This document shows, piece after piece, positions 32,346-32,939 of a stretch of 64,000 nt of DNA. The position numbers were made by a program, and so were the translations under genes. The stretch spans positions 62,001 through 126,000 of the forward strand of contig DATEMU010000013.1 in assembly GCA_035275405.1 (NCBI GenBank), read 5' to 3'. Source of the stretch: Phycisphaerae bacterium. GTDB taxonomy: Bacteria > Planctomycetota > Phycisphaerae > UBA1845 > UTPLA1. Below the pieces are notes generated by a model. The model was not told the origin of the DNA and made no database searches. It saw only the letters and a program-made list of their open reading frames with translations. The stretch's first letter is position 1. Each line of letters opens with the position of its first letter.

Positions 32346-32537
32346 CGCCGATCCACCCCTCCCCTCCACCTCCACACCTACACGCCATTGGCCTGTGCCT
32401 GAAAAGGCGAACGATTCATGACGCTGCCGATACGACGCCGAGCGGCGCCACATGCGTCGGGCGAATGGGATCTACCGGCCGGACACAGTGAACAAATCCA
32501 GGCTTTGAAATACAATCCTCTGACAAGGAGGGCCTTC

Positions 32538-32939
32538 TTGTCGGATCGAATCTCACAAACGGTCTTTGGCATGCCCAGACAAATCTGGGAACGGCACCAT
32601 CGTTGGTTCTACGCTGGCGCTATCGTGATTGCCTTTTTTTGGTGCCTGTTGATGTATTACCTGCCCTCCGTCCGGCCGTGGGGAGGCATTGCTGCTCTGG
32701 TTCTCAACAGCCTCGTCTTATTGCGATGGGTGAATGGAAGGCGGCTGATCCGGAAACTGCGTGATGCAAACTACGAAGTCTGCATCGTATGAGGTTATTC
32801 CTTGAAAGGGCTTCCGAGAATACATCATTGCCCGGAGTGTGGACTCGCCTTCGACAAGGACCAATTGGAGCGGCGGTGGAATTATGCAATATCATTCGGC
32901 CGCGAGCCTTTCGAGCTGCGGGCGCGTAAGAAAAAATAA
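32538..32939 (+). pseudogene. Membrane zinc-ribbon module interrupted by in-frame UGA at a Cys site
   Basis: Starts at a TTG (32538) with AAGGAGG six bases upstream, aligning with the ATG of the next gene: ISQTVFGMPRQIWERHH compared with ISRTVFGFPRHVWDRFH. Two membrane segments follow. At 32790-32792 a TGA replaces the second cysteine of the ribbon motif (CIV-UGA-GYSLKGLP, compared with CIVCGYSLRGLP). The frame then continues without any other stop, still encodes HHCPECGLAFDKDQL, and ends in TAA at 32937-32939, overlapping the next ATG by one base. It is either a nonsense-mutated gene, a sequencing error or a UGA-recoded (selenocysteine) protein. I rate plain nonsense mutation as most likely. 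Confidence 0.7.

What the first reader, a model, noticed from the sequence alone, without database searches (positions are those of the whole stretch)
32538..32939. UGA codon exactly at a zinc-ligand cysteine in an otherwise intact frame
TGA at 32790-32792 stands where the paralogue downstream has Cys (CIV-C-GYSLRGLP). The frame continues for about 48 codons, keeps the second CPECG pair and ends with TAATG overlapping the next start. Nothing else is decayed. This could be a recent nonsense mutation, a sequencing error or selenocysteine incorporation. I see only a weak potential hairpin (CCU/AGG with UGAA loop) just after the UGA, so recoding is not well supported by structure.
Basis: partly seen in the sequence, partly recalled or inferred. 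Interest (0 to 1): 0.72.

Follow-up and report, generated by a model that had tools for sequence, protein, structure and literature searches.

The report
Stop mutation in a zinc-ribbon gene
One of three neighbouring copies of a membrane zinc-ribbon protein in a planctomycete-like bacterium carries a stop codon at a zinc-binding cysteine; the bacterium does make selenoproteins, but this stop lacks the RNA signal found at the real selenocysteine sites checked here, so it is most likely an ordinary gene-breaking mutation.

Summary
TGA 32790-32792 interrupts a frame of 133 codons (TTG 32538 with a good Shine-Dalgarno, TAA 32937-32939 overlapping the next ATG), exactly where the tandem paralogue has the second zinc-ligand Cys. 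They do: selA, selB, selD and tRNA-Sec(UCA), and seven genes here read as selenoprotein genes, one of them selD. That supplied an internal test. All seven of those UGAs, and 13 of their orthologues, are followed 22-35 nt downstream by a hairpin of at least 5 uninterrupted base pairs with a G-containing 3-6-nt loop (GU in all but one). TlpA orthologues with UGA have it in 8 of 8; those with TGC in 0 of 5. The window's UGA has no such hairpin, and its folding is no better than shuffles (z = +0.27). UGA is not conserved at this Cys in 114 genomes of the order or 392 of the phylum; other UGAs hit Cys4 of the same domain sporadically in two genomes. Best reading: a recent nonsense substitution (or consensus error) in one of many redundant copies; selenocysteine about 3%. 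By-product: a conserved 85-aa UGA-containing membrane protein that matches no Pfam or NCBIfam model.

The parts
32525..32532 (+). Shine-Dalgarno AAGGAGGG, 6 nt (from AGGAGG) before the TTG start
   Evidence: sequence
32538..32789 (+). open part of copy 1: N-terminal (T)VFGxPRxxW motif, two hydrophobic segments and first ligand Cys (CIV), 84 codons
32790..32792 (+). in-frame TGA at the position of zinc-ligand Cys 2
32793..32852 (+). stretch where a bacterial SECIS would lie; no G- or GU-loop hairpin of the kind found at the genome's Sec sites
32793..32939 (+). rest of the frame: second CPECG ligand pair and tail, 48 codons, ending in TAA
32939..33715 (+). intact paralogue holding copies 2 and 3 of the same unit, each with CxxC...CPxCG; its ATG overlaps the TAA of copy 1 and has no clear Shine-Dalgarno of its own

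Best explanation
TGA 32790-32792 is an ordinary stop codon. It most likely arose by one base change (TGC or TGT to TGA) in the second zinc-ligand Cys codon of the first of three tandem copies of a two-TM plus zinc-ribbon protein. Translation ends after 84 residues, leaving a membrane peptide with no zinc ribbon. The change is recent relative to the duplication, because the 48 codons behind it still look like the paralogue. Shown: the sequence, the paralogy, the Sec machinery and Sec genes elsewhere in the genome, and the missing SECIS. Inferred: that the base is real in the organism, and that the loss is tolerated because the family is highly redundant (22 matches in this genome).
For: (1) No SECIS-like hairpin at this UGA: zero GU-loop hairpins, best G-loop stem -0.2 to -1.0 kcal/mol; folding of the 43 nt after UGA z = +0.27, 116 of 200 shuffles at least as good. 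(2) The same test finds the hairpin at the genome's own Sec sites: TlpA-like WUAPC, Trx-like TUGGC, Prx-like WUTLC, AhpD-like CRYU, rhodanese YCAU, SelD and a small membrane protein FCUG. In TlpA orthologues 8/8 UGA forms have it and 0/5 TGC forms do. In the FCUG family the six orthologues read all have a stem of 6-8 bp. (3) UGA at this Cys occurs only here among 114 genomes of the order and 392 of the phylum (the other pattern hits are not the domain); a scan of 84,980 species found no further true case. (4) Sporadic UGA at another ligand (Cys 4) of the same domain in two genomes (G010, G033) shows that such stops arise now and then. (5) Some 625 domain matches in 41 genomes make the family redundant and a large mutational target.
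Against: The stop falls exactly on a Cys ligand (6% by chance) in a genome that does use Sec. No other damage is visible. The TAATG overlap suggests that ribosomes are meant to reach 32937 so that the next gene is translated. A recent review (PMC13188914) notes that some bacterial SECIS elements do not fit the standard model.
Confidence: 0.8

Rival explanations
1. Consensus (sequencing or assembly) error or strain mixture: the real codon is TGC or TGT and the protein is intact.
For: Nothing else in the gene is decayed, the preceding and following parts are equally conserved, and the genome is a multi-contig assembly (19 contigs, 96.3% complete).
Against: Single-base substitution errors are rare in modern consensus sequences; no reads or second record of the same strain are available to test it.
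Confidence: 0.14
2. Selenocysteine is inserted at the UGA, giving a zinc ribbon with one Se ligand.
For: Full Sec machinery; at least seven genes read as selenoprotein genes in the genome; the UGA sits opposite a Cys in a CxxC motif; frame and stop overlap are intact.
Against: No SECIS hairpin, whereas 20 of 20 UGA-Sec sites examined in this genome and its relatives have one; UGA not conserved in any relative; the position is a structural zinc ligand rather than a redox catalytic site.
Confidence: 0.03
3. The 84-residue product, ending at the UGA, is itself a functional shortened membrane peptide, and the rest is a decaying remnant.
For: Good Shine-Dalgarno and start; TM part kept.
Against: The relatives found are matched mainly through the zinc ribbon, and the remnant shows no decay yet.
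Confidence: 0.03

Closest known systems
Bacterial selenoprotein genes (UGA plus SECIS; model in PMC13188914, approach in PMC1088965)
   Same: In-frame UGA opposite a conserved Cys in homologues, in a genome with selA/selB/selD/tRNA-Sec
   Different: No hairpin with a G-containing apical loop 16-37 nt after the UGA; no UGA-bearing orthologue
Planctomycete membrane proteins with a CxxCGYxLxGLPxxxxCPxCG zinc ribbon (no dedicated Pfam model found)
   Same: Same domain, same tandem organisation as the next gene
   Different: Second ligand codon is a stop
NCBIfam NF049953 zinc ribbon-containing (seleno)protein DG
   Same: A curated selenoprotein family that also holds a zinc ribbon
   Different: Score 14.6 bits against a cut-off of 130; only the generic ribbon aligns

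Membership tests
bacterial selenoprotein | Sec machinery (SelA, SelB, SelD, tRNA-Sec) in the genome | tested here: met
   selB 302 bits (326 with its neighbour in the frame) and selA 523 bits adjacent on contig C12, selD 371 bits (itself with an in-frame UGA), tRNA-Sec 71 bits with anticodon UCA
bacterial selenoprotein | UGA aligned with Cys in homologues | tested here: met
   aligned with Cys of both paralogous copies
[quoted passage not shown]
   the best relaxed structure is -7.2 with only 2 bp next to the loop; positive sites of the same genome show 5-8 uninterrupted bp
bacterial selenoprotein | UGA conserved in some orthologues | tested here: not met
   no same-genus genome is held, so very close orthologues are untested
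bacterial selenoprotein | full-length Se-containing product | not testable with these tools
   needs 75Se labelling or mass spectrometry
NCBIfam NF049953 ribbon_DG_selen | score above curated cut-off of 130 bits | tested here: not met
   14.6 bits
CxxC...CPxCG zinc-ribbon membrane family | two Cys pairs (CxxC and CPxC) 12 residues apart, with hydrophobic segments before them | tested here: met
   met if the TGA is read as the second ligand: three of four ligands present, one replaced by TGA; paralogues intact

The most novel reading that the evidence does not exclude
Selenocysteine is inserted at a structural zinc ligand through a non-standard or absent SECIS, making a Se-liganded zinc ribbon unique to this lineage.
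Probability: 0.03. Interest if true: 0.75.

Novelty: already known. Interest (0 to 1): 0.13.

Why it matters
By itself the site matters little: a nonsense codon in one of many redundant copies. The value lies in the method. A Cys/UGA pair in a Sec-using genome looks persuasive, yet comparison with the genome's own Sec sites gives a clear negative. The same comparison turned up a conserved small membrane protein family with a UGA that does look like selenocysteine.

Tried and rejected
A codon-usage model to judge the part after the TGA was too weak: it scores -3.6 where 5% of real 48-codon stretches score below -4.1, and the part before is also low, at 3.3 over 84 codons. In-frame TGA matches reported for G037 and G030 are natural stops just behind the domain or lie outside it. 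The three other phylum pattern hits (L062, L063, L065) and the seven GTDB hits are not the zinc-ribbon domain. UGA reassignment was rejected: 293 of 765 long open frames in the fetched part end in TGA. No true orthologue of copy 1 was found in the family (best relative outside the genome 33% identity), so the orthologue test at close range could not be done.

Full report
What is there. The frame 32538-32939 (+) begins with TTG behind AAGGAGGG and runs 84 codons to TGA 32790-32792, then 48 more to TAA 32937-32939, whose last base starts the next gene (ATG 32939). The next gene holds two more copies of the same unit: a (T)VFGxPRxxW-like start, hydrophobic segments, then CxxCGxxLxxLPxxxxCPxCG. 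The TGA stands where both other copies have the second Cys. The residues after the TGA are as similar to copy 2 as those before it (20/45 versus 36/82 identical), so the stop came late relative to the duplication.

The genome can make selenoproteins. selB and selA are adjacent on another contig (302 bits, 326 with a second match in the same frame, and 523 bits). tRNA-Sec scores 71 bits and ARAGORN reads its anticodon as UCA. selD scores 371 bits and has an in-frame UGA at ASCAGUAGK. selA is present in 36 of 41 genomes examined from the order. The presence of Sec machinery therefore leaves recoding possible, and the genome provides its own positive controls.

Positive controls. In 2.43 Mb of the genome I looked for in-frame TGA with coding-like sequence on both sides. 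Clear cases are a TlpA-like FWATWUAPC, a thioredoxin-like TUGGC, a peroxiredoxin-like WUTLC, an AhpD/CMD-like CRYU and a rhodanese YCAU. Pfam confirms four of the five when U is read as Cys; the TUGGC protein has no Pfam match. A sixth, a small membrane protein with FCUGHPLA, has conserved UGA in relatives. Each is followed by a hairpin of 5-8 uninterrupted base pairs with a GU-containing loop of 3-6 nt beginning 22-31 nt after the UGA; SelD has a 7-bp stem with loop GUC 33 nt after it. Among TlpA orthologues, 8 of 8 with UGA have the hairpin and 0 of 5 with TGC do. The six orthologues of the FCUG protein that were read also have it; in one the loop is GGC rather than a GU loop. That makes 20 of 20 UGA-Sec sites examined. 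These sites are Sec by inference from homology, UGA conservation and the hairpin; none was tested at the bench, and the FCUG and TUGGC proteins rest on less than the others.

The window's site fails this test. No hairpin with a GU loop exists between 10 and 40 nt after its UGA. The 43 nt downstream fold no better than shuffles (z +0.27). Against the published model (3-9 nt loop, 4-16 bp upper stem, G in the first two loop positions, 16-37 nt from UGA, MFE at or below -7.5; PMC13188914), the best relaxed structure reaches -7.2 with only two base pairs next to the loop. About 3% of 3,000 ordinary Cys codons of the genome have a chance hairpin as good as the weakest of the five clear controls (TlpA) and 6% one as good as the FCUG site's, so the test separates well.

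Conservation. A pattern for UGA at this Cys followed by CPxCG found only this gene in the 114 held genomes of the order and in 392 genomes sampled across the phylum (other hits dismissed). A scan of one genome per species for 84,980 species gave seven hits, none of them this domain. UGA at Cys 4 of the same domain occurs singly in G033 and G010. In G010 it shortens the protein by only a few residues before another stop. For G033 the strict GU-loop hairpin is only -3.8 and lies 39 nt away; under the relaxed published rule both G033 and G010 can form longer imperfect structures (-12.1 and -12.6), so these two sites are left open rather than excluded. With about 625 domain matches in 41 genomes, occasional nonsense codons are expected. 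A random nonsense change in this gene would hit one of the four ligands with probability 0.065: mildly surprising, not compelling.

Mechanism. Committed reading: a single-base nonsense change at the second ligand codon, giving an 84-residue product without zinc ribbon; two intact copies follow directly and many more exist elsewhere. Because the next start overlaps TAA 32937-32939 and has no clear Shine-Dalgarno, the stop may also lower translation of the next gene (inference). A consensus error remains possible (about 14%). Selenocysteine insertion is unlikely (about 3%).

Comparison with the known. It works like, and most likely is, an ordinary nonsense mutation. It shares with selenoprotein genes the Cys/UGA pair and the genomic setting but fails two tested features, SECIS and conserved UGA. 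NCBIfam does hold a zinc-ribbon selenoprotein model (NF049953), but this protein is far below its cut-off.

Noticed in passing
L252 (genome contig C12:91112-91393, +), L253-L258 in relatives: Small (about 85 aa) membrane protein with motif [FY]CUGHPL: UGA inside 18 of 19 matches across 18 of 41 genomes of the order, SECIS-like hairpin 22-23 nt after UGA in the orthologues read, no Pfam or NCBIfam match. Possible undescribed selenoprotein family; Cys-bearing homologues and literature not checked.
   Followed up: partly
genome contigs C3:87284(-), C15:428205(-), C15:407910(-), C15:137326(+), C15:301492(-), C8:89261-90184(-): Likely selenoprotein genes in the same genome: TlpA-like, Trx-like UGGC, Prx-like, AhpD-like, rhodanese and SelD, with a compact GU-loop SECIS.
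   Followed up: yes
L234 (G010) and L233/L049 (G033): UGA at the fourth zinc-ligand Cys of the same domain in two other genomes of the order; both look like sporadic stops, though imperfect downstream structures leave them open.
   Followed up: partly
L235-L249: TlpA orthologues switch between UGA and TGC within one family, and the SECIS hairpin is present only in the UGA forms; a natural experiment on Sec/Cys exchange.
   Followed up: partly
selA of G019, G025, G029, G032 (family f4): SelA matches are split at about profile positions 259-267 by some 25-50 extra residues in the same open frame; a family-specific insertion in SelA.
   Followed up: no
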